Source: Paracoccaceae bacterium
GTDB taxonomy: Bacteria; Pseudomonadota; Alphaproteobacteria; Rhodobacterales; Rhodobacteraceae
Assembly (NCBI GenBank): GCA_009773055.1
Contig: WOUW01000045.1
Location: 1-35,155 of the forward strand
Length of the DNA stretch: 35,155 bases
Reading direction: 5' to 3'
Shown here in pieces: positions 1,151 through 26,382 of the stretch (its first letter is position 1; every line of letters starts with the position of its first letter). The position numbers were made by a program, and so were the translations under genes. Under the pieces are notes generated by a model, which did not search any database, was not told where the DNA came from, and saw nothing but the letters and a program-made list of their open reading frames with translations.

Positions 1151-1218
1151 CAACCGGTCACATGCCCGCCGCGCAGCTGGCCCCTATCTATCTGGGTGCC
1201 ACAATGACCGAGGTTCCG

Positions 1219-1461: not shown

Positions 1462-1522
1462 GACGTCCTGCCCTCTGGCCCCGCCCCTCCGCGCGGCCTA
1501 TGTTGACCGGCGGAGGCCATTC

Positions 1523-2746: not shown

Positions 2747-2772
2747 AACTTCATGCAGTCTTGCACAGTGCA

Positions 2773-2795
2773 GCGGCAGTCCCTGCAAGGGCCGC
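2773..2795 (+). terminator. GC-rich hairpin behind the ubiquinone hydroxylase gene
   Basis: GCGG and CCGC flank an inner CCC/GGG stem with a TGCAA loop; a small CAGT bulge lies on one side. It starts 27 bases after the hydroxylase stop, where a terminator would be expected. There is no T-run behind it, so a Rho-independent role is doubtful. The rest of 2747-2944 shows no gene I can support. Confidence 0.3.
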
Positions 2796-2944
2796 AAGCA
2801 TCCTGACAAAGGTAGCCGTCCAAGTCCGGACGACTGGCGGTCTTCCCGAGACTGCGCGCTGCCCAACAACATCCGACACAGACCCAGGCGTAAAAGCGGT
2901 CATAGGCACCAAGGGGCAACCACCGGATGACTGCAAAACCGCAC

Positions 2945-2968
2945 AGGCCGGATGCTCCTGTCCGGCCT
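2945..2968 (-). terminator. Hairpin terminator behind the aminotransferase gene
   Basis: A perfect 8-bp inverted repeat (AGGCCGGA / TCCGGCCT) with an 8-base loop begins 7 bases after the aminotransferase stop on the minus strand. Downstream on that strand a short GGTTTT run follows at a small distance. Position and stem support termination of the aminotransferase/enolase transcript; the T-tract is weak. Confidence 0.6.
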
Positions 2969-2975
2969 ATGTGGC

Positions 2976-4100: not shown

Positions 4101-4101
4101 C

Positions 4102-5184
4102 TCAGGTCGCCTCCGATACGCGATGGCGGGCCTTTGCCAGCCAGTCAGGGTTGATCTCGACGCCCCAGCCGGGCGCATCCGTCACGATGGCATGGCCGCC
4201 TTCGATCCGGTAGGGGTCGTTCAGGAAAAGGCCGTCCTGCCAGGGGTAGTAATCCAGTCCCTCGATGGAGAACTCCAGATACTTCCCGGCATTCGGGATC
4301 GCCCGCAACAGGTGCATCGTGCACATCGTGACCAGCCCAAGATTCGCGGCATGCGGGGTGATTGGCAGACCGGCACGTTCGCCCATCCGGCAAACCTCCA
4401 GCGTCCGGTACATGCCGCCCAGATACATGATGTCGGGCTGCAGGATATCCACTGCCTTGTGTTCGATGGCCAGTTGCCAGGCCGTCAACGCCACGTCGAG
4501 GTTCAGGGCCGCGCGAACCTCGGCGGTCTGGTCGACCTCCCAATAGGGGCATGGTTCTTCGAAATGGCTGATGCCATTGTCTTCCAGCATCCGCCCGACC
4601 TCGATGGCGCGTTTCGGCGAATAGCAGGAATTTCCATCAACCAGTTTCTCAACATCGTCGCCGAGAGCCTTGGAAACAATTGGAATAACGGCTTCTGTCC
4701 GACCCGGCCATTCGTCCTGGTCGCGCCCCACCTCGGCCCCGACTCGCCATTTGAAGGCATCAAACCCGAACTCGTCCCGCAGCTTCATGAAGCGCGCCGC
4801 CTCATCCTCGGGCGTGATGTCGCGCTTCATCGAGGACGCATAGGCCCGCACTTTGCCCGGGCTTCCCCCCAACAGCGACACCACCGGCTTGCCGGCAACC
4901 TTGCCTCGCAAGTCCCAGACCGCCGTATCGAGGCCCGCCTGCGCGCGGCGCAGGTAACTGCCGGGAAACTTGTGCTCGCGCTCGAAGATGCGGCGCAGCG
5001 TGTCTTCCAGATCGGCCACCTCGGTCCCAAGCGCGTATGGCGCGACCTGACGATGGAAAATTTCCGCCGTGATATCCGCCTGATAGGTAGAAGTTTGCCC
5101 CCAGCCGACATCACCGGTGTCGGTGGTCACCTTCACAAAGCAGACATATGCGGTATCGAACGTTTCCAGCTTGGCGATCTTCAT
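4102..5184 (-). CDS. Enolase-superfamily protein (mandelate racemase/muconate lactonizing type) lacking the third metal-ligand segment
   Basis: A 360-residue protein with the N-terminal capping domain and the beta/alpha barrel of the mandelate racemase group. Visible active-site elements are the base motif KWR (Lys145, Arg147), the metal ligand Asp183 in LVDGNS, the second ligand in HFEEP (Glu209/210), and the Asp251/His278 pair in LQPD and ITPHAAN. The third barrel ligand normally sits in a GGEQD-like segment after the strand LNLDV. Here LNLDV runs directly into LTAWQLAIEH, so about eight residues including the ligand Glu appear to be missing without a frame change. Family members catalyse alpha-proton abstraction from sugar acids or amino-acid derivatives. 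As read, this copy would lack a complete magnesium site. The start at 5184 has CAGGAG seven bases upstream. Confidence 0.85.
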   Translation of the reverse strand: MKIAKLETFDTAYVCFVKVTTDTGDVGWGQTSTYQADITAEIFHRQVAPYALGTEVADLEDTLRRIFEREHKFPGSYLRRAQAGLDTAVWDLRGKVAGKPVVSLLGGSPGKVRAYASSMKRDITPEDEAARFMKLRDEFGFDAFKWRVGAEVGRDQDEWPGRTEAVIPIVSKALGDDVEKLVDGNSCYSPKRAIEVGRMLEDNGISHFEEPCPYWEVDQTAEVRAALNLDVALTAWQLAIEHKAVDILQPDIMYLGGMYRTLEVCRMGERAGLPITPHAANLGLVTMCTMHLLRAIPNAGKYLEFSIEGLDYYPWQDGLFLNDPYRIEGGHAIVTDAPGWGVEINPDWLAKARHRVSEAT

Positions 5185-5203
5185 GGGCGACTCCTGGTTC
5201 CGC

Positions 5204-5222
5204 CTGACCCTAGACGGGTCAG
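5204..5222. promoter_or_regulatory. Perfect inverted repeat between lrp and the enolase gene
   Basis: CTGACCC and GGGTCAG flank a TAGAC spacer in the 39-base gap between the Lrp-type gene and the enolase start. It could be a weak terminator for the regulator mRNA, an operator for the downstream metabolic pair, or an mRNA processing hairpin. There is no T-run behind it on either strand, which makes simple termination less likely. Confidence 0.4.
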
Positions 5223-5223
5223 A

Positions 5224-5706
5224 TCACCGTTTCCCGACCGAATCCGCCACGCCCAAGGGTCCGGGGCGACGTTCCTCGGTCAAAAGCACATTGGCCTCGA
5301 CGTTGCCCACACCGGGAAGCGTCATGATTCGGCGGCGCAGCACCCGCTCGAAGTCCGCCAGATCCCGCGCGACGACCCGCAGGCGATAGTCGAAAAGCCC
5401 CAACACATGCTGTACCACCTGCACTTCCGGGATGGCCGTCGCCGCCCGCTCGAAATCCTCCAGGCTCACCCGCCCCTTGGTCGCAAGCTTGATCCCCAGG
5501 AACACCGTGACCCCGAAACCAAGTGCTGCCCGGTCGACGTCCACCCGCCGCCCTGCCAGCACCCCCGCTTCCTCCAGCCGCCGCACCCGCCGCCAGGCCG
5601 CAGGTTGCGACAGGCTCATCTGCCGCCCCAGCTCGCCCGCCGACAGGCTTCCGTCCAAAGACAAAGCCCGCAGGATCGCCCGGTCCAGATCGTCCAGCTC
5701 AATCAC
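5224..5706 (-). CDS. Lrp/AsnC-family transcriptional regulator
   Basis: A 160-residue regulator with an N-terminal helix-turn-helix at about residues 5-50 (DLDRAILRAL, then LSQPAAWRRVRRLEEAGV). The C-terminal RAM/AsnC effector domain follows at about 65-145, including VQHVLGLFDYRLRVV and IMTLPGVGNVEANVLL. Length is normal for the family. The GTG start at 5704-5706 overlaps the TGA of the upstream Lrp-like gene, so the two were one transcript. Lrp proteins bind amino acids and act as oligomers on promoters. With ilvC divergent just beyond, and the aminotransferase and enolase genes downstream, amino-acid-responsive control of one of these is a reasonable inference. Confidence 0.9.
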   Translation of the reverse strand: MIELDDLDRAILRALSLDGSLSAGELGRQMSLSQPAAWRRVRRLEEAGVLAGRRVDVDRAALGFGVTVFLGIKLATKGRVSLEDFERAATAIPEVQVVQHVLGLFDYRLRVVARDLADFERVLRRRIMTLPGVGNVEANVLLTEERRPGPLGVADSVGKR

Positions 5707-6043
5707 AGCGGCAGCCCCTCACTCTCCTTGATGGTCGCCACCAGCATCAGCGCCTCGACCTCGGCGATATGCGGTAGCGCAAGGATCCGGTCGCGGTAGA
5801 TGCCGGTCCAGTGCCCCATGTCCCGCGCGATGACGTTCAGGCGCACATCGACGCGGCCAAGGAAGGTCTCGATCCCGATGACCTCGGGCACATCCCGCGC
5901 AGCTGCACTGAATTCGTCGAAGGCGCGGGGGTTGGTCTTGTCCAGCGTAAACCGCAAGCTGACCTCGACCGCATAGCCAAGGGCCCGCCAGACGGTTCGG
6001 CCAGCCAGTGACGCAGGATGCGCCGGTCAGTGTCGTCAAGCAT
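5703..6043 (-). pseudogene. Lrp/AsnC-family regulator with the helix-turn-helix deleted
   Basis: The first codons from 6043 give MLDDTDRRILRHWLAEP, a standard Lrp N-terminus. In a different frame the sequence then continues as VWRALGYAVEVSLRFTLDK and a complete RAM/AsnC domain (VPEVIGIETFLGRVDVRLNVIARD) down to the stop at 5703-5705. Only a junction lies between, near 5990-5995. The roughly 40 residues that normally hold the DNA-recognition helices are absent and the frame is broken. The span is 341 bases, so the missing length is one more than a multiple of three. Intact family members have about 150 residues. The remnant could at most make an effector domain from an internal start near 5957. 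It precedes the intact lrp gene with a GTGA overlap and is divergent from ilvC. Confidence 0.8.
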
Positions 6044-7191
<1,148 letters not shown>

Positions 7192-7210
7192 TCCCGGCGA
7201 AAATCCTGAA

Positions 7211-7236
7211 AAAGGGCGCCCGAGGGCGCCCTTTTG
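7211..7236 (+). terminator. Rho-independent terminator of ilvC
   Basis: AAAAGGGCGCCC and GGGCGCCCTTTT form a perfect 12-bp inverted repeat around a GA centre, starting 19 bases after the ilvC stop and ending in TTTT. Because it is symmetrical it could work from both strands, but only the plus strand has a gene feeding it closely. Confidence 0.9.
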
Positions 7237-7293
7237 CTTGGCCACACCGGTAAGATCGGGCAGGCTTTCGTCCAGGACGGGAAAGGACCGGAC

Positions 7294-7545
7294 ATGTCGA
7301 AATGGATACCCATCGCGCTGATCGGCCTCGCCTTTATCTGGTTCATCCTGACCAACGTCGGCAGTTCCCTGGCGCTGTCCGACATTGCCGCGCAACCGAT
7401 CCTTGCGCTGGTCAAGGACGGCCAGACCATCCGCGTGCAACAGCCGGGCCAGGCCGCCACGCCAGATGCTGCCCGCATCCTTGGCGGTTCCGGCGTGCAG
7501 TTCGGTCGATGCCGCCCGCGCAACCCTGCGGCGTCCCCAGAGTGA
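7294..7545 (+). CDS. Small membrane-anchored protein, function unknown
   Basis: An 83-residue reading frame beginning MSKWIPIALIGLAFIWFIL, which is one N-terminal membrane segment (about residues 4-20). A polar tail rich in Gln, Ala and Arg follows, with no recognised motif. The start ATG at 7294 has GGGAAAGGACC upstream. It ends seven bases before the glycosyltransferase-like gene and may be translated together with it. Codon use and composition are like the neighbours. No family was recognised, so the call rests on start signal, hydrophobic segment and spacing only. Confidence 0.5.
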   Translation: MSKWIPIALIGLAFIWFILTNVGSSLALSDIAAQPILALVKDGQTIRVQQPGQAATPDAARILGGSGVQFGRCRPRNPAASPE

Positions 7546-7552
7546 GGCCCCG

Positions 7553-8328
7553 ATGCCCAGCCTTCTGATCCTGATGCCGACCGGCGGCCAGATCGAGACG
7601 CCGACCGTGCACAGCCTGATCGGCCTTACCCAGGCCCTGCCGCGCCGCAGCATTCCCTTCGCGCTAAAGACCTACGAATGGTCCGACCTCGTGATCTCGC
7701 GCAACTACCTGATGTCGTTCTTCCTGGCCGAGAAGACCTTCACCCACGCGCTCCTTCTCGACAGCGACATGAGCTTTCATCCCCAGGTCTTCTTCGACCT
7801 TTTGGACTTCGACGCCGATTTCACTGTCGCCCCCTACCCGCAGCGCCAGATGCGCTGGTCCACCTTCCGCGCCCTGATCGAACGCGAGGCGCAAAAGCCG
7901 GAAGCAGACCGCGCCCCGACCGATCGACTGCTGGCTGAAAGCTACCGCTACAATGTGGCCGAACGGTTCGATGCGGGCGCGCCTGGCCGCATGAGGTCAG
8001 GGGCAATTTCCGCAAGGTCCCGGGGGCCGGGACCGGTTTCATGCTTCTGCGCCGCGCGGTGCCCGAACGCATGGTGGAAACAGGCACGGCGCTCCCGGTA
8101 CCGGCCTTCAATGGCCCGGGCTATCCGGGTGCCGATTTCCACGATTTCTTCAGCCATCTGCGCGGCCGTGGCGGCGCGGTGATGCACGGCGAGGATACCT
8201 CGTTCTGCCGCCGCTGGATCGACGGCTGCGGCGGCGAGATCTGGTGCCACGAGACAGCGAAGATAACCCATCACGGCGGGCTGGCGTATCAGGGCGACTA
8301 CAGTCTGGCGAAGAAGCCGCGCGGGTAA
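7553..8328 (+). pseudogene. Glycosyltransferase-like (GT-A fold) gene with an internal frameshift
   Basis: The first frame from the ATG at 7553 reads PSLLILMPTGGQIETPTVHSL and contains LLLDSDMSFHP, a DxD-type metal/nucleotide-sugar motif (Asp70, Asp72) in a GT-A context. It continues normally to about residue 140 (YRYNVAERFDA). The homologous continuation, WPHEVRGNFRKVPGAGTGF and on to a C-terminus containing HGEDTSFCRRW, lies in another frame that ends at 8328. The shift falls inside the GC-rich run at about 7973-7985 and corresponds to a loss of one base (or a gain of two). Read through, it would be about 258 residues. It could be a recent loss, a sequencing error or, less likely, recoding; no slippery heptamer with a downstream structure was evident. 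The acceptor and sugar are unknown. Confidence 0.7.
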
Positions 8329-8412
8329 AGAGGCGGACGGCAGACGCTTCGACAACACCAGCTTTGTATCCTTGCTCCGCTCATAGCCCCGCGGTCGCCT
8401 TCGGCCCAGCCC

Positions 8413-9228
8413 TCACTCGCCCACCGCACCCCGCAGGGCCGCGGTCGCCTCTGCCGGCCACAACGCGGTATCGGCAGGCCAGAAACGCGCTTCGCTTTCG
8501 CCCGAGACATGCCAGGCGGCAAAGACACCTTCGCTGGCGGTTTCCAGATAAAGCATCGCCCAATCCCCATCGCAGGTGTATTTCAGGCAGGCCTGCCCCA
8601 GATAACCCTCCGTCGTCAGATCACCTGACCCAAGGTCGGAAATCCGTTCAGCAAAGACTGGGTAGTCTGCCCCAAGCCCCGCCTGCAACGCGGTCAGCAC
8701 TGGTGCCAGCTTCATCGCCTCCGCCGGATGCGCCTTCGCCAGCGAAGGCAGGGCGTCCCAGCCCAGACCCGGATCGGCGCTGAACTCCTCGGGCGAGGCC
8801 TCGGTCAGTCCGGTCGTCGGGTTCCAGGCCCAGACCTCACCCGGCTCGGATGGCAGTGGCTCGGTGGAAAAGACCAGCCCCTCGGGCTGAACCTGCATCG
8901 CGAACGAGCGGCAACTGTCGATCGGACCATAGAGCGCCGGTGCCGCGCCTTCGGGCAGGGCCAACACAATGGGGGCGGCTCCGCAAGCGTTGCCGCCTGG
9001 CCCCGCTACCCCAGTCACGACCGTGACGCCCGCAAGGGTCTGCTGCGCCTCGTCCAGGTAGATCACGCCGTTCTCGTGCAGGACCTCGCCGTCGACCAGA
9101 AGTGCCGCTCCGCCCATACCGTCGTCCTGAACGCTGACCAAATGCCCGCCGACCGTCAGATCTTCTGCCGACACCGCCGTGCCCCATAGCAGTGCCGCCA
9201 CGCCCGCGCCAATGAACTGCCTGCGCAT
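8413..9228 (-). CDS. Secreted protein of unknown function
   Basis: A 271-residue protein with a clear signal peptide (MRRQFIGAGVAALLWGTAVSA, cleavage before EDL), so it is expected in the periplasm or outside. The mature part contains four Cys (GGNACG, DSCRSF, GQACLKYTC) that could form two disulfides. It is Trp- and acid-rich towards the C-terminus. I recognise no named domain. The start at 9228 was chosen for the signal peptide and the GGGAGAACC stretch just before it; the frame is open further upstream to 9471, but that part is low-complexity and has no signal sequence. It lies downstream of glmM on the same strand, separated by 173 bases in which I see no gene and no clear promoter. Confidence 0.75.
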   Translation of the reverse strand: MRRQFIGAGVAALLWGTAVSAEDLTVGGHLVSVQDDGMGGAALLVDGEVLHENGVIYLDEAQQTLAGVTVVTGVAGPGGNACGAAPIVLALPEGAAPALYGPIDSCRSFAMQVQPEGLVFSTEPLPSEPGEVWAWNPTTGLTEASPEEFSADPGLGWDALPSLAKAHPAEAMKLAPVLTALQAGLGADYPVFAERISDLGSGDLTTEGYLGQACLKYTCDGDWAMLYLETASEGVFAAWHVSGESEARFWPADTALWPAEATAALRGAVGE

Positions 9229-9401
9229 TTCCGGTTCTCCCTTGTTTTCAAAGTGCAACACTGACGAAGGCATCGCCACCGCACCAGAGCGGAAAGCCTG
9301 ACCCTCCGCTTGGAAGGCAAGGGTTAAAGACGTATGAATGTGGCCCGCCAAGCCATTGAAATATCTACAGGGCCCAAGGGCGCCACGCGCGGGCAGCCAG
9401 A

Positions 9402-10745
9402 TCAGACCGCAGCCTCCACGGCCCCCACGATCTCGTCGACCACGGCCGCCAGCAAGGCCTCGTCCTCGCATTCCGCCATCACCCGGATCAGGGGTTCGGT
9501 CCCCGATTTCCGGATCAGGATGCGCCCCAGTCCCTCGATCCGCGCTTCGCTTGCCCGAATCACCGCCTGCACCGCCTCGAGCTCCAGAGGCCGCGCCCCT
9601 GCCGTGAAGCGGACGTTCTTCAGCATCTGCGGGACCGTCGCGAAACTGCGGGTCAGCTCGGACGCGGGCTTGCCCGTCCGCACCATCTCGGCCAGGAACT
9701 GCAACCCCGCCACCAGCCCGTCCCCGGTCGTCGCATAGTCGGTCATCACGATGTGCCCCGACTGCTCGCCCCCAAGGTTGAAGCCCCCCTCGCGCATCCG
9801 TTCGACCACGTAGCGGTCACCCACCGCCGTCCGCTCCAGCCGCAGACCACGGCCTTGCAGGAACCGCTCCAGCCCCAGGTTCGACATCACCGTCGCGACC
9901 AGCGCACCGCCCGCCAGCCGCCCCTCGGTCGCCCAGCGGGCAGCCAGCAGCGCCATGATCTGATCCCCGTCCGCGACCCGCCCGGTTTCATCCAGGATCA
10001 TGATCCGGTCCGCATCGCCATCCAGCGCGATGCCGACATGTGCGCCATGGGTGACCACAGCCTCGGCCGCCGTCTCGGTATGGGTCGACCCGCAACGGTC
10101 GTTGATGTTGGTCCCGTTCGGCGCGACCCCGATCGGGATCACCTCGGCCCCCAACTCCCACAATACCTCCGGCGCGGCCCGGTAGGCCGCACCGTTTGCA
10201 CAGTCGAGCACGACCTTCAGCCCGTCCAGCCGCAGACCGGTTGGGAAACTCGTCTTGACGAACTCCTCGTAGCGCCCGCGCCCGTCCTCGATTCGCTTCG
10301 CCCGCCCGATGTTCTCGGGCTTCGCGGGCTGGACCTCACCCTCGACCAGTGCCTCGATCTCGGCTTCAGCCGCGTCCGACAGCTTGAACCCGTCCGGCCC
10401 GAAGAACTTGATCCCATTGTCCTGATGCGGGTTGTGGCTGGCAGAGATCATCACCCCTACGTCCGCCCGCATCGACTTGGTCAGGAACCCCACCGCCGGG
10501 GTCGGCACCGGGCCCAGCAGAAGCACGTTCATGCCCGTTGAACAGAACCCCGCCGTCAGCGCGTTTTCCAGCATGTAGCCCGACAGCCGGGTGTCCTTTC
10601 CGATCACCACCCGGTGCGCAGAAGACCCGTCCCGGCGGAAATACCGCCCCGCCGCCGCGCCCAGTTTCAGCGCCAGCTCTGCCGTCATCGGCCAGCTGTT
10701 CGCCCGACCCCGGACGCCATCGGTGCCAAATAGCTTGCGGCTCAT
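9402..10745 (-). CDS. glmM: Phosphoglucosamine mutase
   Basis: GlmM interconverts glucosamine-6-phosphate and glucosamine-1-phosphate, feeding UDP-GlcNAc for peptidoglycan and lipopolysaccharide. This 447-residue protein starts [11 protein letters not shown], has the phosphoserine loop [16 protein letters not shown] (reactive Ser at about 103) and the metal loop ALDGDADR near 245. The sugar-binding loop GGEQSGHI and the phosphate-binding [12 protein letters not shown] lie near the C-terminus. Length and motifs are complete. The ATG at 10743-10745 overlaps the folP stop by four bases (ATGA), so the two are translationally coupled in a folB-folP-glmM unit. Confidence 0.97.
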
Positions 10746-11761
10746 GCCTCTTCCTCCAGATGATCGGTGTTCAGCGATTTCCACAGCCGCAGCGCCTGCC
10801 GCGTCTCGGCCACGTCGTGAATGCGGATGATCTGCGCGCCTTGCGCCACCCCGGAAAGGGCCGTGGCGATGGACCCGGGCGCGCGGGCATCCGGCGCGTC
10901 GGCCCGGCCAATCGCTCCGATGAATCGCTTGCGCGAGGTGCCCAGCAGGATTGGACAGCCCAGCCCGTGCAACAGCGACAGCCCGCGCAGCAAGGTCAGA
11001 TTGTGGGCTTGCGTCTTGCCAAAACCGATCCCGGGGTCCAGCGCGATCCGCGCGCGGGCAATCCCCAGTGCCTCGGCCCGGGCCAGCCGCGCGGCCAGCG
11101 CATCATAGACGTCGAGGAGCACGTCCCCATAGCGCGGGTCGTCCTGCATCGTCTTCGGCACGCCCTGTGCGTGCATCAGCACCACCAGGGCGCCTGTTCC
11201 AGCCGCCAGTGGGCCAAGGGCCGGATCGAAATCGAAAGCCGACACATCGTTGACGATGGTCGCCCCGGCCCGAAGTGCGGCTTCGGCGACCGGCGCTTTC
11301 CGCGTGTCGATCGAGATCGGAGCCATCAGCCCTCCTTCCCGCAAGGCACGGATCACCGGGGCGGTGCGGGCGATTTCTTCAGCCACCGGCACCTCGACCG
11401 CGCCGGGGCGAGTGCTTTCGCCCCCGATGTCGATGATCTCGGCCCCTACGGCCATCGCCCGCGCCTGAGCTACCGCCGCATCAGCCCCAAGAAACTTGCC
11501 GCCGTCCGAAAAACTGTCGGGCGTTACGTTCAGGATGCCCATCAGCCGAGGCCGGTCCATGCCCAGACCCGCAAACGCCGGGCGGGGGGCCGTCAACCGA
11601 TGCAGGACTGACGCTGGAACCTCTGACGCCGGGATCAACCGCGACGGTGCTGCCCGCGACAGAACCTCGACCCGGTCGAACCAGCACCAGCCCCCGGCAA
11701 GTGCGAAAGCCCCCGCCGGGCGGGCGGGATCGGTCATCGCGATAGGGCGGAAATACTCCAT
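10742..11761 (-). CDS. folP: Dihydropteroate synthase
   Basis: DHPS condenses dihydropterin pyrophosphate with p-aminobenzoate and is the sulfonamide target in folate synthesis. The TIM-barrel signatures are [26 protein letters not shown], the ISIDTRK strand, INDV-type VNDVSAFD, and GTSRKRFIG near the end. At 339 residues it is longer than the E. coli protein by an N-terminal extension of about 70 residues ahead of the barrel, beginning MEYFRPIAM. The extension carries no recognised motif. The ATG at 11761 lacks a clear Shine-Dalgarno; an internal ATG eight codons later is possible. It follows folB after 45 bases and overlaps glmM. Confidence 0.96.
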
Positions 11762-11806
11762 GGTTTCGGATTGGCCGAAGCCAAGGCCCTTTTCAAGGGG
11801 GAAGCG

Positions 11807-12709
11807 TCAGGCGCGCCTTACCGGGACGCGGCTTCCTGCCGGGACTGCAACCTCGCCGTGAACAACCAGCGCCGTTGCCGACAGGGTCTCCGCAAGCCAA
11901 AGTGCAAGACCCACCGGATCGCTGCCCTTCGGCCCGTCCACCGCGTCCAGCACCAGCTTCGACGGCGCCCAGACCACCGTCTGCCCCCGCTTCATTGCCC
12001 AGTCGATCTCGGTCCGCGTCGCCACCACCACGCACCGCGCATCGCGGGCGGCAAGGGTCCAGGCGTTCTGCTCGATGGCCAGCAGGTCCACCCGGCGCTG
12101 CGTCGGCTTGTGACCGGTGACCGGGCGCGAAAGGTCCGGCAGGCCGACGGTCAGGATCATCGGCAGCCCTTCGGCCTGCAAGGCATCCAGCCGCGCTGAC
12201 AGATCGGACGCATGGATCGTCGAATTGTCGACGAATACGACCAGCGGATGCACCGCCTCCATCCCCTCGTCCCCGGCCTTCTGCACCGGGCGTTCGGCGC
12301 GCGAGCGGACAATCTCGACCCCCAACGCATAGGGACCAACGTCCAGCTTCTCGATCCGGATGAACACCCGCATCGCCGCAGGCTCGGCCAAGATGCGTTC
12401 GGCCACGCGTTCGGCCAGCGTTTCCAACAGGTTCAGCCGTTCCGCCGCCAGTTCCGCCGCAATGGATTCGGTGATCCGGTCATAGGACAGGATGCGGTCG
12501 ACGTCGTCCTCCAGCGGCTCCGTCACCGGGCGGACCTCGACCACCACGTTGAACCGCAGGCGCTGCTTGTGCCCGCGTTCCTTCTGAAAGGCCCCAATGT
12601 CCGCCTCGACCAGATGATCGCGCAAGGATATCCGGTCGCGCATCCCCGTGCCTGCCGAAGCCTCGGCTCGGTCTTCGGGATGGGCGAATGCCAGGTCGAT
12701 ATCGCTCAT
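11807..12709 (-). CDS. folB: Dihydroneopterin aldolase with an extra C-terminal domain of unknown function
   Basis: Residues 1 to about 130 are FolB: HLVEADIGAFQKERGHKQRLRFNV, LNLLETLAERVAERIL and FIRIEKLDVGPYA hold the substrate-binding Glu and catalytic Lys expected of dihydroneopterin aldolase, which releases glycolaldehyde in folate synthesis. The protein is 300 residues, while stand-alone FolB is about 120. The added part (about 135-300) starts HPLVVFVDNSTIHASDL and includes ILTVGLPDLSRP, CVVVATRTEIDWA and WAPSKLVLDAVDGPKGSD, an alternating hydrophobic pattern suggestive of an alpha/beta fold. I do not recognise it. The start at 12709 has GAGGACC seven bases upstream; the frame remains open to 12859 without homology. 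It is first in the folB-folP-glmM unit. Confidence 0.9.
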   Translation of the reverse strand: MSDIDLAFAHPEDRAEASAGTGMRDRISLRDHLVEADIGAFQKERGHKQRLRFNVVVEVRPVTEPLEDDVDRILSYDRITESIAAELAAERLNLLETLAERVAERILAEPAAMRVFIRIEKLDVGPYALGVEIVRSRAERPVQKAGDEGMEAVHPLVVFVDNSTIHASDLSARLDALQAEGLPMILTVGLPDLSRPVTGHKPTQRRVDLLAIEQNAWTLAARDARCVVVATRTEIDWAMKRGQTVVWAPSKLVLDAVDGPKGSDPVGLALWLAETLSATALVVHGEVAVPAGSRVPVRRA

Positions 12710-12797
12710 CAAGGGTCCTCCGCCACTTCGGCCCCTCATACCACGCGGGCCGCGCGGGCCAAGCGGGAAGGCGTCACCGAAGGCACGATTGGCGACA

Positions 12798-13421
12798 TCA
12801 GCCGTTCGCGCCGGGCTGCCGGTAAAACAGGTGCTCACCGATGGCCGCGGTCTTGGCAAAGCGCTTGGACCAGCTGGGTTTCACGCCCCGCGTGTGGAAG
12901 TGGGTCGCGCCGTCGGTCAACACGCGCGGCGCACCATCTATCATCGCCCGCGCGATCCGGCCCGCAAGGTCACGCGCGGTCTTCTCCCGCATCTTCGTCG
13001 TTCCCCGGCAGACGTAAGAGAACTGGCACCCGCCACCGCCGCGCTGTTTGACCACGCCGCAGACCGTGCGCGGGTAAAGCGGACTGTCGGCCCGGTTCAG
13101 GATGACTTCGGCCACGGCAATCTGGCCTTCCAGGCTTTCGCCACGGGCTTCGAAGTAGATCGCCTGTGTCAGGCACTCCCATTGCGCATCGCCCGTGGGG
13201 TCCGGGCGCGCCATGAGCCACTCTTCGGTGATCCCCTCGGTCATCGCGATGGCAGGGAGCGGACCACTCAACTCTGGCGTGGGCAGCCGTTTCAGTTCCG
13301 GGGAATAGGATGCCAGGCTGGGCTCCAGGCCGAACATGCTGCGGTTCCAGTTGGAATCCGCGGTCGCCGTGTTGGCCACAAGGCCCATCACCAGCGCGAA
13401 AATCGCCAGGTTGCGTTTCAT
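12798..13421 (-). CDS. SleB/CwlJ-like cell wall hydrolase (Hydrolase_2 domain)
   Basis: A 207-residue exported protein. The signal peptide is MKRNLAIFALVMGLVANTATA. The second half is a Hydrolase_2 domain: ECLTQAIYFEARGESLEGQIAVAEVILNR with the likely catalytic Glu91 in YFEARGE, then GCQFSYVCRG and GATHFHTRGVKPSWS. Such enzymes cut the glycan strand or peptidoglycan cross-bridges; in non-sporulating alphaproteobacteria they act in wall turnover. The length fits a single-domain rhodobacterial member. It lies on the same strand downstream of the PPDK-like gene but behind a hairpin with a T-rich tail, so it may have its own promoter in the 185-base gap. It ends 88 bases before folB. Confidence 0.88.
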   Translation of the reverse strand: MKRNLAIFALVMGLVANTATADSNWNRSMFGLEPSLASYSPELKRLPTPELSGPLPAIAMTEGITEEWLMARPDPTGDAQWECLTQAIYFEARGESLEGQIAVAEVILNRADSPLYPRTVCGVVKQRGGGGCQFSYVCRGTTKMREKTARDLAGRIARAMIDGAPRVLTDGATHFHTRGVKPSWSKRFAKTAAIGEHLFYRQPGANG

Positions 13422-13456
13422 TCTGCTCTTCCGTCTTTGGTTCTTGGCGGAAGTTT

Positions 13457-13529
13457 CCCCGCCTTGGCAAGCTGGCGGGGAGGTATGGGAAGCAGCCCGG
13501 GGGGTCTATGGTTGTGGCCAAAATGCCAC
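13457..13529 (-). other. Two hairpins in the leader of the cell-wall hydrolase gene
   Basis: On the strand of the gene, the 5' leader can fold into GTGGC/GCCAC around a 6-base loop (13514-13529) and CCCCGCC/GGCGGGG around a 10-base loop (13457-13480). The second lies about 36-60 bases before the start codon. They may stabilise the mRNA or be remnants of termination of upstream transcription; neither has a T-tract. No known riboswitch pattern was recognised. Confidence 0.35.
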
Positions 13530-13551
13530 GGAAATCAATGCTGCATAAGCG

Positions 13552-13572
13552 AAAGACCGCCGAAAATGGCGG
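13552..13572 (-). terminator. Hairpin terminator behind the PPDK-like gene
   Basis: CCGCC and GGCGG flank an ATTTTC loop on the minus strand, followed by TCTTTC, 35 bases after the stop of the PPDK-like gene and within an AT-rich stretch. The stem is only 5 bp, so termination may be partial. Confidence 0.5.
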
Positions 13573-13606
13573 AAATCTATGAAGAAAATCTTACAATTAA
13601 CTGATT

Positions 13607-16153: not shown

Positions 16154-16176
16154 TGCAGCACCTTTTGTTCAAGTGC

Positions 16177-16204
16177 AGAATACGCCGAAACCCCTGTCAA
16201 TCAA
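16177..16204 (-). promoter_or_regulatory. Candidate sigma70-type promoter of the PPDK-like gene
   Basis: On the minus strand TTGATT (16199-16204) and TATTCT (16177-16182) are separated by 16 bases and end 24 bases before the GTG start. A 10-bp palindrome TGACATGTCA lies just upstream at 16208-16217 and could be an operator. The 90-base gap to glyS is relatively AT-rich. The call rests on pattern only. Confidence 0.4.
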
Positions 16205-16243
16205 GGGTGACATGTCAGTCGTATGACGAATCTTTGGGCGCTT

Positions 16244-18553
16244 TCAGCCCTCAATGCGGCTCAGGTCCGCAACCCCGGAACAGATCGCCCGGATCCGGTG
16301 CAGCAAGTTCAGCCGGTTGCGCCGGATTATCTCGTTGTCACTGTTCACCTGAACGGCGGTGAAGAAAGCATCTATGGGCGCGCGGAGGGCTGCCATCGCG
16401 GCCATCGCCCGGGGAAGATCCTCTGCCGTCATCGCCGGGGTGATCTCGGCCTCGGCCTTGTCCAATGCGGCAAACAGCGCGCGTTCCTCGTCGGTTTCGG
16501 CGAATTTCACCTCGGCCCCGAAGGAATACTCGACGCCATCCTTCGCCTCGGCCTGAGACAGGATATTCGCCGCCCGCTTGTAGCCCTGGATCAGGTTCGC
16601 CCCGTCCTCGGTCTTCATCACCGCCGCAAGGGCCTCGGCCCGCTTGACGAGGAGCGTCAGGTCGTCATTCCCCGGCATGGCAAGGCAAGCGTCGATGATG
16701 TCGTGCCGGATGCCCTGGTCCTTGAGGTAGACCTTGAGACGGTCGTGGAAGAAGGAGAGGAGGTCGGACGAAATGATGTTCAAGGGAACGATTTCTACTG
16801 AACCCCAGTTCCCACGAGGATCATTGTCTAGAACAATCGATAGTCCATCGTCATTGTCTTGATCGTGGGGTTCAAAGAACGTCCAGAACAGCTTGGAGTC
16901 CATTAAATCAAAGTCTGGATAGATGGTAGAATGAGTTTGTAGCCGGGTGTTTCTCGGATGCAGAGCGAAGTTGCCGTCCTCCGCAAACAGGAGGTAGGCA
17001 TGGAATTGAGCAGACAGCCGCTGAACGATTGCTGACCAACTTCCTTGGAACAGTTCAGTCAGTGAAACCCTCACCCCGTTCCCCAGCACCAACCGGATCA
17101 CCCCCAGCGCCGCCCTCCGCAGCGCGAACGGGTCCTTCGACCCCGTCGGCTTTTCGTCAATCGCCCAGAACCCGGTCAGCGTGTCGATCTTGTCGGCCAA
17201 CGCCACGGCCACCGACACCGGCTCGGTCGGGACGCCATCACTCTCCCCCTTCGGCCGCCAGTGGTCGCGGGCGGCGTCGGCGATGGGGGCCTTCTCCCCG
17301 GCCTCCAGCGCGTAGTAGCGGCCCATGACGCCCTGCAGTTCGGGGAACTCACCCGCCATCGCCGAGCGCAGGTCCAGCTTCGCCAGCCGCGCCGCACGTT
17401 CGGCGTCGTCGGCATCGGCCCCGACCAAGGGCGCAATCTCCCGCGCGAGGGCTGCAATCCGCTCGATCCGTTCCGCTTGCGACCCCAGCTTCGCCTGGAA
17501 GGTCACCGACTTCAGCCCCTCAACCCACTCGCCCATCCCGGCCTTCGCGACGCGCAAGTCATTCTCCCAGAAGAACTTCGCGTCCGACAGGCGGGCCGCC
17601 AGCACCTTCTGGTTGCCCTTCAGGATCACCTCGCCACCATCCGCGGCCTCGATGTTGGCCACCGTGACAAAGCCCTCGATCCGCCCGGTCTTCGGGTTCC
17701 GGACCGAGAAGAACTTCTGGTGTTCCTTCATCGAGGTCTGCAGCACCTCGGGCGGCAGACCCAGGAAGGGCTCGCCGACGCGGCCCATCAACGGCACGGG
17801 CCATTCGACCAACCCCGCGACCTCGGCCAGCAACCCGGGGTCCGCCACTACCTCCATCCCCGCCGCAAAGGCCAGGTTCTGCGCGCCCTGCCAGATCGCG
17901 GCTTCGCGTTCAGCGGTGTCCAGCACGACCTTGGCACGCTTCAGCTTGACCACATAGTCGTCAAAGCCCGACACCGTGAACCGCCCGTTCCCCATGAACC
18001 GATGCCCTTCGGTGACGTTGCCCGCAACGATCCCGTCCACCTCCATCGGCACGACATGCGCGCCAGTTTCATCGGACAGAAGGCAGACAATGGACTGCAG
18101 GGGCCGCACCCAGCGCAACGTGCCACTGCCCCATCGCATCGACTTCGGCCAGGGGAAGTTGCGGATAACGCTTTCCAGCACCTCGGCCACGATTTCTGCC
18201 GCCAGACGGCCCGGCTTTTCGACCACGGCATAAAAGGTGTCGCCCTTCTTGTCCGCGCGGCGTTCCAGCTGGTCCAGCGTCAGGCCGGTCGACCGCAGGA
18301 ACCCCTCAACCGCCTGCGCGGGGGCCGACACTGACGGCCCTTTGCGTTCCTCCCGCACCGGACGGCTCTCTGCCGTCAGCCCATCGACCGACAGCACCAG
18401 CCGACGCGGGGTGGAAAACGCCCCGGCACTGGCATAGGTCAGCCCGGACTCCACCAACCCGTCGGTCATCAGCTTGCGCAGGTCTTCGCGGGCGCGGGCC
18501 TGCATCCGGGCCGGGATTTCCTCGGAGAAGAGTTCGATCAGAAGGTCGGGCAT
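16244..18553 (-). CDS. glyS: Glycyl-tRNA synthetase beta subunit, with an unusual internal insertion
   Basis: The beta subunit of the heterotetrameric bacterial GlyRS, which binds tRNA-Gly and works with GlyQ. It begins MPDLLIELFSEEIPARMQ, the hallmark N-terminus. It continues through LVEWPVPLMG, PPEVLQTSMKEHQKFF and VALADKIDTLTGFWAIDEKPTGSKDPFALRR, and ends with the anticodon-binding part (DAFFTAVQVNSDN, RNRLNLLHRIR). At 769 residues it is about 80 longer than the E. coli protein. The excess lies between VRVSLTELF and DLLSFFHDRLKVYLKDQG (about residues 498-596), where the DNA is visibly richer in A and T. The reading frame is intact across the insertion. An AGGAA stretch precedes the ATG at 18553. 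Confidence 0.95.
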   Translation of the reverse strand: MPDLLIELFSEEIPARMQARAREDLRKLMTDGLVESGLTYASAGAFSTPRRLVLSVDGLTAESRPVREERKGPSVSAPAQAVEGFLRSTGLTLDQLERRADKKGDTFYAVVEKPGRLAAEIVAEVLESVIRNFPWPKSMRWGSGTLRWVRPLQSIVCLLSDETGAHVVPMEVDGIVAGNVTEGHRFMGNGRFTVSGFDDYVVKLKRAKVVLDTAEREAAIWQGAQNLAFAAGMEVVADPGLLAEVAGLVEWPVPLMGRVGEPFLGLPPEVLQTSMKEHQKFFSVRNPKTGRIEGFVTVANIEAADGGEVILKGNQKVLAARLSDAKFFWENDLRVAKAGMGEWVEGLKSVTFQAKLGSQAERIERIAALAREIAPLVGADADDAERAARLAKLDLRSAMAGEFPELQGVMGRYYALEAGEKAPIADAARDHWRPKGESDGVPTEPVSVAVALADKIDTLTGFWAIDEKPTGSKDPFALRRAALGVIRLVLGNGVRVSLTELFQGSWSAIVQRLSAQFHAYLLFAEDGNFALHPRNTRLQTHSTIYPDFDLMDSKLFWTFFEPHDQDNDDGLSIVLDNDPRGNWGSVEIVPLNIISSDLLSFFHDRLKVYLKDQGIRHDIIDACLAMPGNDDLTLLVKRAEALAAVMKTEDGANLIQGYKRAANILSQAEAKDGVEYSFGAEVKFAETDEERALFAALDKAEAEITPAMTAEDLPRAMAAMAALRAPIDAFFTAVQVNSDNEIIRRNRLNLLHRIRAICSGVADLSRIEG
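16766..17060 (-). other. Lower-GC in-frame insertion within glyS
   Basis: This part of glyS encodes a stretch rich in Asp, Asn, Phe and Trp (FWTFFEPHDQDNDDG, LDNDPRGNWGSVEIV) that I cannot align to GlyRS beta. Base composition drops visibly from the GC-rich surroundings and codons such as ATT, TTG, AAT, AGA and TCA cluster here. Flanking GlyS blocks resume exactly in frame. No terminal inverted repeats or intein motifs (no Cys/Ser start with a His-Asn end) were found, so it is not an obvious mobile element. Confidence 0.6.
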
Positions 18554-18571
18554 CGGTCAGGGTTCCTGAGA

Positions 18572-19177
18572 TCAAATCCAGTCGAGGTTGACACGGGTCG
18601 GCGGGAAGGCGGCGGCGACGGACTCGCGCAGGGCGGCAAAGCGGGGGCGCAGGTCCTTGAACTTGCGTTCGTGGGTTTCGGCCACGGTCAGCTGGATCTG
18701 GTCGAACAGCCCCTGCCGCAGCATCGCGTCAAGCAGGTCCAGCTCCGCCCCCTCGATGTCGATCTTGACGAAGGCAATGCGACCATGGGCTGCCAAAAGG
18801 CCGCGGAGGAAGGCCGGGAAGTCGATCAGTGCGACGTCGATCCCCTCGCCCTCGGCAATGTTCTGGCCACCCGCGACAACCGTGCTTTTCACCGACGCGA
18901 GCTCCGGGTTCGCCTCCCAGTTCGCCGCCCGCATCAGCCGAATCGCGCCAGATTCGGTCCCCACGGCAGCGGCGTGAAGATGCACGTTGGCGGTCCCGGC
19001 AAAGCGTTCGGTCAGTTTCTCAAGATTGTAGGCCCGGTTCGCCCCGCAGTCCACTGCCACATCCCCCGGCCGCAGCATCGAGACGACGCCCTGCAGCATG
19101 CCCTCGGCCCGCGCATAGCGCAGGTCGCGCTTGTGACGGCGCCTCAGCTTCCGCAGGGGATCCTCGGCCTCGGCCAT
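18572..19177 (-). CDS. FkbM-family methyltransferase lacking the SAM-binding loop
   Basis: A 201-residue protein. The C-terminal half is clearly FkbM type, with FVKIDIEGAELDLLDAML (the DIEGAE signature) and LTVAETHERKFKDLRPRF. The N-terminal half should contain a Rossmann loop beginning VDCGANVG and ending in an acidic SAM-ribose contact about 20 residues on. Here VDCGAN (residues 42-47) runs directly into RAYNLEKLTERFAG, a helix that normally follows the second strand. Roughly 20-24 residues thus seem deleted in frame, removing the core of the cofactor site. I chose the ATG at 19177 because GAGGAG, which is the end of the preceding gene, sits four bases upstream; a TTG at 19189 is possible. 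It lies between the DUF6446 gene and glyS with very short gaps, in one transcript. Confidence 0.82.
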   Translation of the reverse strand: MAEAEDPLRKLRRRHKRDLRYARAEGMLQGVVSMLRPGDVAVDCGANRAYNLEKLTERFAGTANVHLHAAAVGTESGAIRLMRAANWEANPELASVKSTVVAGGQNIAEGEGIDVALIDFPAFLRGLLAAHGRIAFVKIDIEGAELDLLDAMLRQGLFDQIQLTVAETHERKFKDLRPRFAALRESVAAAFPPTRVNLDWI

Positions 19178-19178
19178 T

Positions 19179-19655
19179 CTACTCCTCAAGGTCGCCGTTC
19201 AGCTGCTGCCAGGCATAGGCCCGCCCGTCACCAAAGACCGCGACCACCCGGTCAACGCCCGGGTGAATGTTCGGCTCGGACAGGAAGGCCAGCGCCTCGC
19301 CGGTCTCCAGCGCCTTACCGATCGCTTCGGCGTCAAAACAGTCAAAGCCGCGCGGCGCGATCAGCGGCTCGGCCTCCTGATAGTCCCGGTAAGTCTCGCT
19401 CAGCATGGCCAGCGAAAGAGGCGTGGTAAAGCAGGCCCGGAACTTGATGGGAGAGCTGTCAGCGTCGATCCCTTCGATCCCGTTCACGACAATGACTTCG
19501 GGCTGGTCGCCGGTCAGCGGCACCAGCCGGATTTCCGCGCCGGGCTGGAAGGCGACGGGATCGTAGAACGCCCGTTCGGCGGTATACCACAGGAACCCGC
19601 CCGCAAGGGCAGACGCAATCACGATAGAACTCACGGCGAGTTTGCCCGCATTCAC
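19179..19655 (-). CDS. DUF6446-type membrane-anchored protein in the gly operon
   Basis: A 158-residue protein with an N-terminal membrane anchor or signal ([21 protein letters not shown]). A periplasmic part follows, with [57 protein letters not shown] and a C-terminal [18 protein letters not shown] recall this architecture between glyQ and glyS in Rhodobacterales under the name DUF6446; the function is unknown. The start is a GTG at 19653-19655 overlapping the glyQ stop (GTGA), which indicates translational coupling to glyQ. Two Cys (RACF, FDCF) might form a disulfide. Confidence 0.8.
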
Positions 19656-20578: not shown

Positions 20579-20692
20579 GGGCAGCCTCGGGCGGGGGCGA
20601 CGGACAGGGAAGCGGGTCGCGCACTCCCTACCGACTGGGGGGCACAGGGTCAATTCCGGAAAGAACTGGCGCAACCGTGACCGGTTTCACCC

Positions 20693-20720
20693 TTGCCGCT
20701 GCGCGCGCCTTGGCTAATGT
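20693..20720 (+). promoter_or_regulatory. Candidate promoter of the peptidoglycan-binding protein gene
   Basis: TTGCCG (20693-20698) and TAATGT (20715-20720) with a 16-base GC-rich spacer lie 34 bases before the start codon. The CTTGCC...GGCTAAT layout resembles housekeeping promoters I recall from Rhodobacteraceae. No matching clear promoter for the divergent glyQ was found. Confidence 0.4.
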
Positions 20721-20754
20721 CGCCCAACGCGGAACTTATCTTCAGGACCTGTTC

Positions 20755-22500: not shown

Positions 22501-22502
22501 GC

Positions 22503-23951: not shown

Positions 23952-23999
23952 GGTCGGGCATGGCTACGCGGCCCCGCGCCTTTGGTCAATCGGCTGCGG

Positions 24000-25085
24000 T
24001 CAGCGGCTGTGGATCAGCGTCTGGAAAAGCTGCGGGTCGAGGCTTTCGGCCGCGAAGGTCTCGCCCTCGGTCAGAAGGCTGATCGCGTCGTGGCTGTGCA
24101 GGCTTTCCTGATGGCTTGCGACCACCCGGAAGTCGCCGATCCGGGCCTCATCCCGCAAGGCTTCGCAGAACAGCCGCGCCGCGTCTTCCACGAAGATCGG
24201 GTTTGCCGCGTTCAGTTCCGCGAAGGCCTGCTCGTCCTCGCGCTTCACCATGACCTGCGTCTCGGTGACCACTGCGCTCCGCGCGAGTTCCACCAGATCC
24301 TCCAGCGCCATGTCGGCTGTCAGCACGACCGACAACCGCGCCACGGACCGCTGCGAATGCGGCGTTGCCAGTTGTCCACGGACCGCTCGGGCGTGCTCGG
24401 CCAGCTCCAGGCTGCACGGGCAGGTGGAGCTGTAGACGTAGTCCAGATGCACGATCCGCTTGCGGACCCCGGCGACCTCGACCAGTTCCAGCGCAATGTC
24501 GTAATACTGCCAGCCCGACAGGCCCGACCGAAGCGATTTAAGCTGCATCGGGAACGACAGGCGCATCTGGATGCGCGCATCAAAGCTGCCAAGGTCGGCC
24601 TTGTAATCATCCAGCGCCGCCTCGATCACCCCGAAGGAAAACGCCTTGTCGGCATGGGCATAGAACGACCGCATGATGCGGCTCATGTTGATGCCCTTCT
24701 TTTCAGCCTCCAGGCTCACCGTGCCGGTGACACTGGTTTCCAGCTGAACCGGTGCCCCGTCGCGGGTGGCAAAGCGGACCGGCAGGCGGAAATTCGAGAT
24801 CCCGACATGCTGAATCCGCGCCTTTGCACCCTTGATCAGGCTGGACGGCCCATTCTGCAGGTCGGGCATCGACGCCTTGTAGGCCGCGTCGGGGCGGAAC
24901 GTCCAAGGATAGTCGCGCGACAACGCCGGATAACCCTGCCCCGGCAAAAGCCAGCCCACGGCGGAATCCAGCTTTGCAATATCCTCGTCCGAGGACTTGC
25001 CCGCCCACTGGCGCAGCACAGCCAGCGCCGCCTCTGCCTCTTCGCGAGACGGCAGACGATCGAGTTCCGGGGTATGGATGTTCAT
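24000..25085 (-). CDS. folE2: GTP cyclohydrolase FolE2 (type IB)
   Basis: FolE2 converts GTP to dihydroneopterin triphosphate, the first step of folate synthesis, and is the metal-flexible alternative to zinc-dependent FolE. The 361-residue sequence has VGISNFRLPVRF, the active-site stretch YSSTCPCSLELAEHAR with the metal-binding Cys, TPHSQRSVARLSV, and NPIFVEDAARLFCEAL near the end; all are family signatures. With folB and folP it gives this window three steps of one pathway, but in separate units; folK is absent. The ATG at 25085 has AAGGACC upstream. The 176-base gap upstream of it contains no gene and no box that I could recognise as a Zur site. Confidence 0.95.
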   Translation of the reverse strand: MNIHTPELDRLPSREEAEAALAVLRQWAGKSSDEDIAKLDSAVGWLLPGQGYPALSRDYPWTFRPDAAYKASMPDLQNGPSSLIKGAKARIQHVGISNFRLPVRFATRDGAPVQLETSVTGTVSLEAEKKGINMSRIMRSFYAHADKAFSFGVIEAALDDYKADLGSFDARIQMRLSFPMQLKSLRSGLSGWQYYDIALELVEVAGVRKRIVHLDYVYSSTCPCSLELAEHARAVRGQLATPHSQRSVARLSVVLTADMALEDLVELARSAVVTETQVMVKREDEQAFAELNAANPIFVEDAARLFCEALRDEARIGDFRVVASHQESLHSHDAISLLTEGETFAAESLDPQLFQTLIHSR

Positions 25086-25261
25086 CGGGCAGGTCCTTTC
25101 GGTTCGGGCGGGCCATCTGGCCAAGCCTTCAATTTCCGGAGAGTTCTACGCAGGGCGTCCGCCAACGGATCACCCTGGTCCGAGGCAGGCCCCCATCAGA
25201 TAGGCATTCCGCCGCGTAACGCAAGCAGCGATTGCGACCCATGTTGCACGGCCGGCGTCAA

Positions 25262-26382
25262 TCAGCCCTGGCTCAGCGCTCGGAAGAGATCCTCCTGCAG
25301 ATCGCCCGCATCCTCAAGGCCCACGGACAGCCGGATCAGGCCCGGCGTGATGCCCAGCTTGTCCTTAACCTCTTGTGCAAGTCGCTGGTGCGTGTCGCCA
25401 GCGCGTTCATGAAGCGGAACGCCGCCTCTTTCCCGCCCTTGACGTCAAACGTCACCAAGGTCCCGCCCGAGCCCATCTGCGCCAGTGCAAGATCATGCTG
25501 AGGGTGACTGGCCAGCCCCGGATAGATCACCCGCGACAGATTGGGATGGTCCGCCAGTGCGCGGGCCAGGGTCAGCGCCGTGTCCGCCATCGCCCGGCAG
25601 CGCAGATCCAGCGTCGCCATGCCGTTCAGCATGATCCACGCGGTGAACGGGCTCATCGAGCCCCCGGTGTGCTTCATGAAGGGTTCCAGCGTCTTTCGGA
25701 TGAACTCCTTCGTCCCGCAAACCACGCCCCCCAGCGCCCGTCCCTGCCCGTCAATGTGCTTGGTGGTCGAATAGACCACCACATCGGCCCCCTGCTCGAC
25801 CGCGCGCGAAAAGATTGGCGTTGCAAAGACGTTGTCGCAGATCACCAGCGCGCCCACGGCATGGGCGATTTCAGACACGCTGCGAATGTCCACCAGCTCC
25901 AGCGTCGGGTTTGACATGGATTCGAAGAACACCGCCTTCGTGCCCGGCGTGACCGCCTTCCGCCACTGGTCCAGGTCCGCGCCGTCGACAAAGGTGACCC
26001 GAACCCCGAACTTCTGCAGCACGTCTTCCAGCACATAAAGGCACGACCCGAACAGCGCCCGCGACGACACCACATGGTCCCCCGCCCGCAGGCAGGACAT
26101 CAGTGCCCCCGATACCGCCGCCATGCCGCTGGCGGTGGCAAAGGCGTCCTCGGTGCCTTCCAGCGCGGCAATCCGCTCCTCGAACATCCGGGTGGTGGGG
26201 TTGCCGTAGCGGGCATAGATGAACTCGTCCTCGCTCGCCTTGACGAACCGCGCTTCGGCCGCCTCGGCGGTGGGATAGACGAAGCCCTGGGTCAGGAAGA
26301 TCGCTTCGGCCATTTCGCCATACTGGCTGCGGCGGCTGCCTTCGTGCACCAGCTGAGTCCGTGTCTTCCAGTCCTTCGTCAT
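25262..26382 (-). pseudogene. metZ: O-succinylhomoserine sulfhydrylase with a 3' frameshifting deletion
   Basis: MetZ makes homocysteine from O-succinylhomoserine and sulfide with PLP. From the ATG at 26382 the protein is normal for over 330 residues: EAIFLTQGFVYPTAEAAEARF, EFIYARYGNPT, ASGMAAV, VYSTTKHIDGQGRALGG with the PLP lysine, and GGTLVTFDVKGG. After FRFMNAL the frame ends at 25336 with 16 unrelated residues. The expected C-terminus (THQRLAQEVKDKLGITPGL, LSVGLEDAGDLQEDLFRAL) is present in another frame down to a TGA at 25262-25264. Between them the family's ISNNLGDAKSLATHPAT block is missing. The span of 1121 bases fits a loss of about 67 bases, which would restore roughly 395 residues. 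The region contributes to substrate and PLP binding, so the product is probably inactive as read. A SAM-II riboswitch controls it. Confidence 0.85.

What the first reader, a model, noticed from the sequence alone, without database searches (positions are those of the whole stretch)
4102..26382. Recurrent loss of short motif-bearing segments in several genes of one window
Four recognisable genes lack an internal piece of about 24 to 120 bases that carries an essential motif: the second lrp (helix-turn-helix), the enolase (third metal ligand), the FkbM methyltransferase (SAM loop) and metZ (3' block). A fifth gene, glycosyltransferase-like, has a small frameshift. The neighbouring housekeeping genes (ilvC, glmM, glyQ, folE2, ftsY) are intact. 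So many independent motif losses in 22 kb of core genome would be unusual for a free-living cell. It suggests genome decay, an unusual mutator or deletion process, or an assembly/amplification artefact that skips GC-rich foldable segments.
Basis: partly seen in the sequence, partly recalled or inferred. Interest (0 to 1): 0.75.

Follow-up and report, generated by a model that had tools for sequence, protein, structure and literature searches.

The report
Draft-assembly joins that mimic gene losses
Several genes in this stretch of a draft bacterial genome really do lack short internal pieces, but the pattern points to faulty joins in the assembly rather than to a decaying or mutating bacterium.

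Summary
Against syntenic relatives the window lacks 21 bp (enolase-superfamily gene, 4488|4489), 115 bp (second lrp, 5991|5992), 60 bp (FkbM, 19032|19033), 61 bp (metZ, 25393|25394) and 1 bp (glycosyltransferase-like, near 7981). No relative examined shares the large losses: metZ is full length in all 80 loci kept, and the enolase segment is present in 15 of 15 close orthologues.

The window is a contig of a 59%-complete, 87-contig draft. Similar losses recur on other contigs, one inside cytochrome b. Private losses run at about 8 per 100 kb, against about 1 in three relatives counted alike. Small frame-breaking indels show no clear excess. Six of ten coding losses are out of frame, yet DNA beyond those breaks still changes mainly at third codon positions. 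Junctions are blunt. The assembly also carries short N runs whose lengths disagree with relatives.

Best explanation: contig ends were joined end to end across short unsequenced gaps, with no N written. The artefact is well supported; the exact software step is inferred. Genome decay and a mutator are not supported, nor is hairpin skipping as a general cause. No reads were available.

The parts
4488..4489 (.). junction inside the enolase-superfamily gene (4102-5184, - strand); 21 bp (7 codons) absent, in frame
   Evidence: alignment (three relatives), (21 bp in both G022 and G008; 15 of 15 orthologues at 89% identity or more are 7 residues longer over the same span)
5991..5992 (.). junction inside the second lrp gene (about 5719-6043, - strand); 115 bp of the helix-turn-helix region absent, out of frame
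   Evidence: six relatives aligned, all six hold the segment; 115 bp in G022, G008 and G015
7981..7982 (.). one base absent in a glycosyltransferase-like gene (about 7554-8329, + strand), frameshift
   Evidence: alignment with L037 and L033; the small-indel count did not list it
16239..16246 (.). shorter intergenic spacer before glyS (45-73 bp shorter than in G022, G008 and G015, but L042 has the same short spacer, so not a sure artefact)
19032..19033 (.). junction inside the FkbM-type methyltransferase gene (18572 to about 19180, - strand); 60 bp absent, in frame
   Evidence: 60 bp in G022 and G008; in 7 of 9 relatives with the gene the match splits at the junction with 60 bp more DNA, and in the other 2 it starts at residue 45 or 51, too near the junction (about residue 52) to tell; 8 of 11 loci with a match, those at 54% identity or more, have 20-24 more residues
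25393..25394 (.). junction inside metZ (26382 down to about 25262, - strand); 61 bp absent, out of frame, replacing the C-terminus after residue 328
   Evidence: six relatives; 61 bp in G022, G008 and G015; all 80 loci kept have 391-399 aa and match the window protein only to residue 328-335

Best explanation
The missing segments are errors of a draft assembly, not mutations of the organism. Gaps of roughly 20-120 bp broke the assembly, and the pieces on either side were later joined end to end. Where the estimated distance was positive, a run of N of estimated length was written. Where it came out at or below zero, the ends were abutted with no N, which leaves a blunt false deletion. Shown here: the losses, that they are private among the relatives examined, their excess over relatives, blunt junctions, codon constraint beyond the frameshifts, and mis-sized N gaps elsewhere in the assembly. 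Inferred: that the blunt joins come from the same scaffolding step as the N runs, and that reads or a better assembly would contain the segments.
For: Private losses: metZ full length in 80 of 80 loci, the best kept of 497 relatives found; enolase, 15 of 15 close orthologues in 32 genomes searched, own included; FkbM, 7 of 9, two uninformative; lrp, 6 of 6 aligned. Excess: 12 events in 147.9 kb against 4 in 365.6 kb of controls; two further control runs with G022 as query and the own assembly as one subject gave 0 in 117.6 and 0 in 82.3 kb. Draft state: 2.26 Mb, 87 contigs, 59.14% complete. Mis-sized gaps: 17 short N runs (5-101) in 1.098 Mb held, none in 583 kb of relatives' stretches. In one search, of seven N runs tried, 14 N stand where relatives have -4 bp, 11 where -7, 5 where 20, 26 where 26-29, and 57 where the one matching relative has 140; two gave no clear answer. 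A mask of real bases would keep length. Three of 17 N runs separate ends that share 4-6 bases. Blunt ends: 0-3 bp shared at 9 of 9 junctions measured. No selection filter: 4 of 10 coding losses are multiples of three. Core genes hit out of frame, including cytochrome b (C1:16825, 121 bp). Private substitutions 3' of the six out-of-frame junctions fall 13/16/70 by codon position (five genes, C13:2815; summed). Small frame-breaking indels: own 4 in 147.9, 4 in 124.5 and 8 in 110.8 kb, relatives 4, 6 and 4 in about 122 kb each. One possible end-to-end join of overlapping ends: an exact 20-bp tandem copy breaking a dhaK-like gene at C2:6846.
Against: No reads or second assembly of this species could be examined, so the false joins are not shown directly. 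The flanks of the blunt junctions do not fold more strongly than random, although those of the N runs do, so the two kinds of break may not have the same cause. If overlapping ends were often abutted, private insertions and exact tandem copies should be in excess; they are not: private insertions of 4 bp or more number 22, 19 and 15 for the own assembly against 17, 21 and 27 for relatives, and frame-breaking two-copy tandem units are 2.7 per Mb against 1.3 and 7.3. Private insertions of 15 bp or more are 3.4-3.7 per 100 kb against 2.2. The gap-size error needed for the blunt joins (21-121 bp) is larger than most errors seen at N runs, though one N run is short by 83 bp. Mismatches are not raised next to the junctions, as they might be at poor contig ends.
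Confidence: 0.92

Rival explanations
1. An amplification or polymerase artefact (for example single-cell amplification) that skips foldable or GC-rich segments, so that the reads themselves carry the deletions.
For: Incomplete genome (59%); some N runs end at strong hairpins (C1:13056 and C80:17665) and N-run flanks fold more strongly than random (P 0.016). Four of nine lost segments are above background GC in every comparison, and 3 of 24 rows are among the most foldable tenth. The lost metZ piece lies between short inverted arms (read by eye).
Against: metZ and cytochrome b segments are below background GC and 21 of 24 rows are not unusually foldable; blunt-junction flanks fold like random sites; shared bases at junctions are 0-3.
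Confidence: 0.06
2. Real, ongoing genome decay: the lineage is losing genes, as in host-restricted bacteria.
For: Ten coding losses of 21-121 bp, six of them out of frame, in nine stretches totalling about 193 kb.
Against: Small frame-breaking indels show no clear excess; private substitutions past the frameshifts still favour third codon positions; cytochrome b is hit. GC content and gene order are like those of relatives.
Confidence: 0.01
3. A very recent mutator that makes blunt deletions of 20-120 bp everywhere, so recent that codon constraint has had no time to fade.
For: Blunt junctions, a narrow size range and no clear excess of other indels.
Against: Scaling ten coding losses in about 193 kb to 2.26 Mb gives on the order of a hundred, cytochrome b among them, which is hard to reconcile with a living cell (inference). 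The assembly has independent signs of faulty joins.
Confidence: 0.01

Closest known systems
Spurious pseudogenes from assembly errors (PMC11017572; abstract and passages seen)
   Same: Genes that look broken because of coverage and assembler behaviour; the authors warn against trusting such pseudogenes without other evidence.
   Different: The passages seen concern internal stops and frameshifts in RefSeq assemblies, leave truncations aside and state that metagenome-assembled genomes were not assessed; here the errors are losses of 21-121 bp in a partial draft.
Under-predicted and negative scaffold gaps in drafts (PMC3504050; passages seen)
   Same: Gap sizes in drafts can be wrong; the passages describe under-predicted gap sizes and neighbouring contigs expected to overlap that do not.
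   Different: Large animal drafts with N gaps to be filled; here the joins in question carry no N at all.

Membership tests
Assembly artefact (false deletion at a contig join) | Loss absent from the close relatives examined | tested here: met
   (two of nine FkbM relatives uninformative)
Assembly artefact (false deletion at a contig join) | Losses spread over the assembly without regard to frame or gene importance | tested here: met
   C1, C7, C8, C13 and C46; 4 of 10 multiples of three; cytochrome b hit. C2, C3, C32 and C49 gave no such loss in the stretches compared
Assembly artefact (false deletion at a contig join) | Blunt junction without the direct repeats of slippage | tested here: met
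   0-3 bp shared at 9 of 9
Assembly artefact (false deletion at a contig join) | Independent signs of faulty joins in the same assembly | tested here: met
   mis-sized N runs and shared ends; but no excess of insertions or tandem copies
Assembly artefact (false deletion at a contig join) | Clipped reads or insert-size shift at the junctions | not testable with these tools
   no reads held
Artefact caused by GC-rich foldable segments | Lost segments or flanks unusually foldable or GC-rich | tested here: not met
   four of nine segments are GC-richer than background, two poorer; 3 of 24 rows unusually foldable
Genome decay | Excess of small frameshifts beside larger deletions | tested here: not met
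Genome decay | Relaxed codon constraint in broken genes | tested here: not met
   13/16/70 by codon position

The most novel reading that the evidence does not exclude
The deletions are real and very recent: a strain or single cell in which a repair defect (or sudden decay) produced blunt 20-120 bp deletions across the genome at once, before selection could act.
Probability: 0.02. Interest if true: 0.8.

Novelty: not a real feature. Interest (0 to 1): 0.08.

Why it matters
Apparent motif losses in draft genomes can be mistaken for pseudogenes or for odd protein variants. This case gives a cheap test from sequence alone: compare private losses with control relatives, measure junction overlap, check codon-position bias beyond the break, and compare N-run lengths with relatives. 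Gene-loss or metabolic claims from this draft (for example no MetZ or no working cytochrome b) should not be made.

Tried and rejected
Hairpin skipping: tested by folding lost segments and flanks with DNA parameters; not supported as a general cause. N stripping over the whole assembly: rejected, because short N runs are still present. End-overlap duplications as a general signature: one clear case, no excess. Losses confined to the low-numbered contigs, where 11 of the 17 N runs lie (C1-C13): rejected, a 62-bp loss lies in C46. Lost segments sitting elsewhere in the held own sequence: no convincing match (one weak 36-base hit). More mismatches next to junctions, as at poor contig ends: not seen (0.145 near, 0.178 further away). 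The first codon-position script chose the longest frame, often antisense. One search chose the frame with most third-position changes, which is mildly biased, and took wrong frames for the enolase gene and C13:2815; the enolase row is not used and C13:2815 is taken, so my sum 13/16/70 differs from the 13/18/71 printed. One search failed on a contig that reads wholly N and was redone. The synteny search with C16 found no match in three relatives, so that contig was not used. Literature: searches; passages seen of PMC3504050, PMC5368935 and PMC11017572. No paper on this assembly was sought.
Full report
What was checked. The window is contig C7 of a draft assembly, G000: 2,261,068 bases, 87 contigs, 59.14% complete, 0.3% contamination. 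Named records that match the window's metZ best carry titles such as Tabrizicola, Rhodobacter and Rhodobacteraceae or Rhodobacterales bacterium, and the lengths of two relatives' contigs equal those of named records in that list (Rhodobacter sp. SY28-1 and Tabrizicola aquatica RCRI19), so the genus is most likely Tabrizicola in the GTDB sense (inference). I fetched syntenic stretches from ten relatives of the same genus and aligned the window to them.

Against relatives the window lacks 21 bp in the enolase-superfamily gene (4488|4489), 115 bp in the second lrp (5991|5992), 60 bp in FkbM (19032|19033) and 61 bp in metZ (25393|25394), and one base near 7981 in the glycosyltransferase-like gene (two relatives). 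The lost lengths are the same in each of the two or three relatives measured. The 115-bp and 61-bp losses shift the frame.

The losses are private among the relatives examined. Of 32 genomes searched in the genus, own included, 15 others hold an enolase orthologue at 89% identity or more, and all 15 are 7 residues longer over the same span. In the same 32 genomes nine others hold the FkbM gene: in seven the match splits at the junction with 60 bp more DNA, and in two it starts at residue 45 or 51, too near the junction (about residue 52) to tell. Among the 80 metZ loci 11 hold an FkbM match; the eight at 54% identity or more have 20-24 more residues over the same span, and the other three are distant (30-32%). 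For lrp, all six relatives aligned carry the segment.

The pattern is assembly-wide. I compared stretches of nine contigs of G000 (about 193 kb) with the relatives G022, G008 and G015 and counted losses of 15 bp or more seen against two relatives at one place. Against G022 and G008, G000 has 12 rows in 116.2 kb (two rows are the one FkbM event) and 1 in 31.7 kb. The other pairs of relatives gave 6 in 81.1 and 7 in 82.0 kb, and 2 in 43.4 and 1 in 28.8 kb. With relatives as the query the counts were 1 in 91.9, 0 in 92.7 and 2 in 91.2 kb, and 0, 1 and 0 in about 30 kb each; C8 is not in these controls because only two relatives were fetched for it. The G022+G008 rows include intergenic ones at 5187, 16240 and 22502; 16240 is not wholly private, as one relative (L042) has the same short spacer, and 22502 differs in size between the two relatives. 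Dropping these three leaves 9 events, rough Poisson P 4.9e-5. The ten coding losses are the four in the window and C1:12024 (47 bp), C1:16825 (121 bp, cytochrome b), C8:10882 (81 bp, polyketide-synthase-like), C13:2815 (49 bp), C13:5819 (102 bp, von Willebrand A-like) and C46:5410 (62 bp, aldo/keto-reductase-like) (gene names are my reading of the proteins printed there). Contigs C2, C3, C32 and C49 gave no such loss in the stretches compared.

Why this is not decay or a mutator. Four of the ten lost lengths are multiples of three, near the one third expected without selection. Beyond the six out-of-frame breaks, substitutions private to G000 fall 13/16/70 on codon positions 1/2/3 (lrp 1/3/7, metZ 4/5/10, C1:12024 2/2/12, cytochrome b 2/1/13, C46 2/3/18; C13:2815 2/2/10, because picked a wrong frame there; sum). 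The frame was chosen by its third-position changes, a mild bias. These genes therefore look to have been working until very recently. Small frame-breaking indels show no clear excess: 4 in 147.9, 4 in 124.5 and 8 in 110.8 kb with G000 as query, against 4, 6 and 4 in about 122 kb each for the relatives. Decay would be expected to raise them too.

Why it looks like faulty joins. Junctions share 0-3 bp at 9 of 9, against the longer direct repeats usual in slippage deletions (recalled). In the 1.098 Mb of G000 that I hold there are 17 short N runs of 5 to 101 bases, with none in 583 kb of relatives' stretches. Their lengths look like estimates and are often wrong: 14 N where relatives have an overlap of 4 bp, 11 N where 7 bp, 5 N where 20 bp, 26 N where 26-29 bp and 57 N where the one matching relative has 140 bp; two further runs gave no clear answer. 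Three of the 17 N runs stand between ends that share 4-6 bases. At C2:6846 an exact 20-bp tandem copy breaks a dihydroxyacetone-kinase-like gene, as if overlapping ends had been abutted. So this assembly contains short unsequenced gaps of the right size and joins made without a correct length. The simplest account is that joins with an estimated gap at or below zero were written with no N.

What speaks against parts of this. The flanks of blunt junctions fold like random sites (P 0.50), whereas N-run flanks fold more strongly (P 0.016), so the two may not share a cause. Private insertions of 4 bp or more are not in excess (22, 19 and 15 against 17, 21 and 27), nor are exact tandem duplications, so overlapping ends were not often abutted. 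Mismatches are not raised beside the junctions. Reads were not available, so the false joins are inferred, not seen.

Known setting. Spurious pseudogenes from assembly errors are documented (PMC11017572, abstract and passages), and so are under-predicted and negative scaffold gaps (PMC3504050, passages). Nothing here is a new biological feature.

Noticed in passing
16769-17087: glyS carries a stretch of about 300 bp that BLAST does not align in the relatives; G022 has a stretch of similar length there (289 bp) while G008 has about 133 bp. Probably a variable insertion in the glycyl-tRNA synthetase beta subunit.
   Followed up: no
L062 (contig C16 of the same assembly), 1-17600: A 17.6-kb contig, GC 0.617, with no match in three relatives at E 1e-40 (the tool notes that an empty answer alone shows little): perhaps accessory DNA, a plasmid, or a foreign contig in the bin.
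   Followed up: no
L049 (contig C2) about 6846: Exact 20-bp tandem copy that breaks a dihydroxyacetone-kinase-like gene; absent from three relatives.
   Followed up: partly
L048 (contig C1) about 13056 and L263 (contig C80) about 17665: N runs that begin directly after a strong hairpin, as if sequencing or assembly stopped there.
   Followed up: partly
18572-19189: The FkbM-type gene is patchy in the genus: found at E 1e-20 or better in 10 of 32 genomes searched, the window's own included, and missing between conserved neighbours in four relatives (G007, G015, G021 and G013).
   Followed up: no
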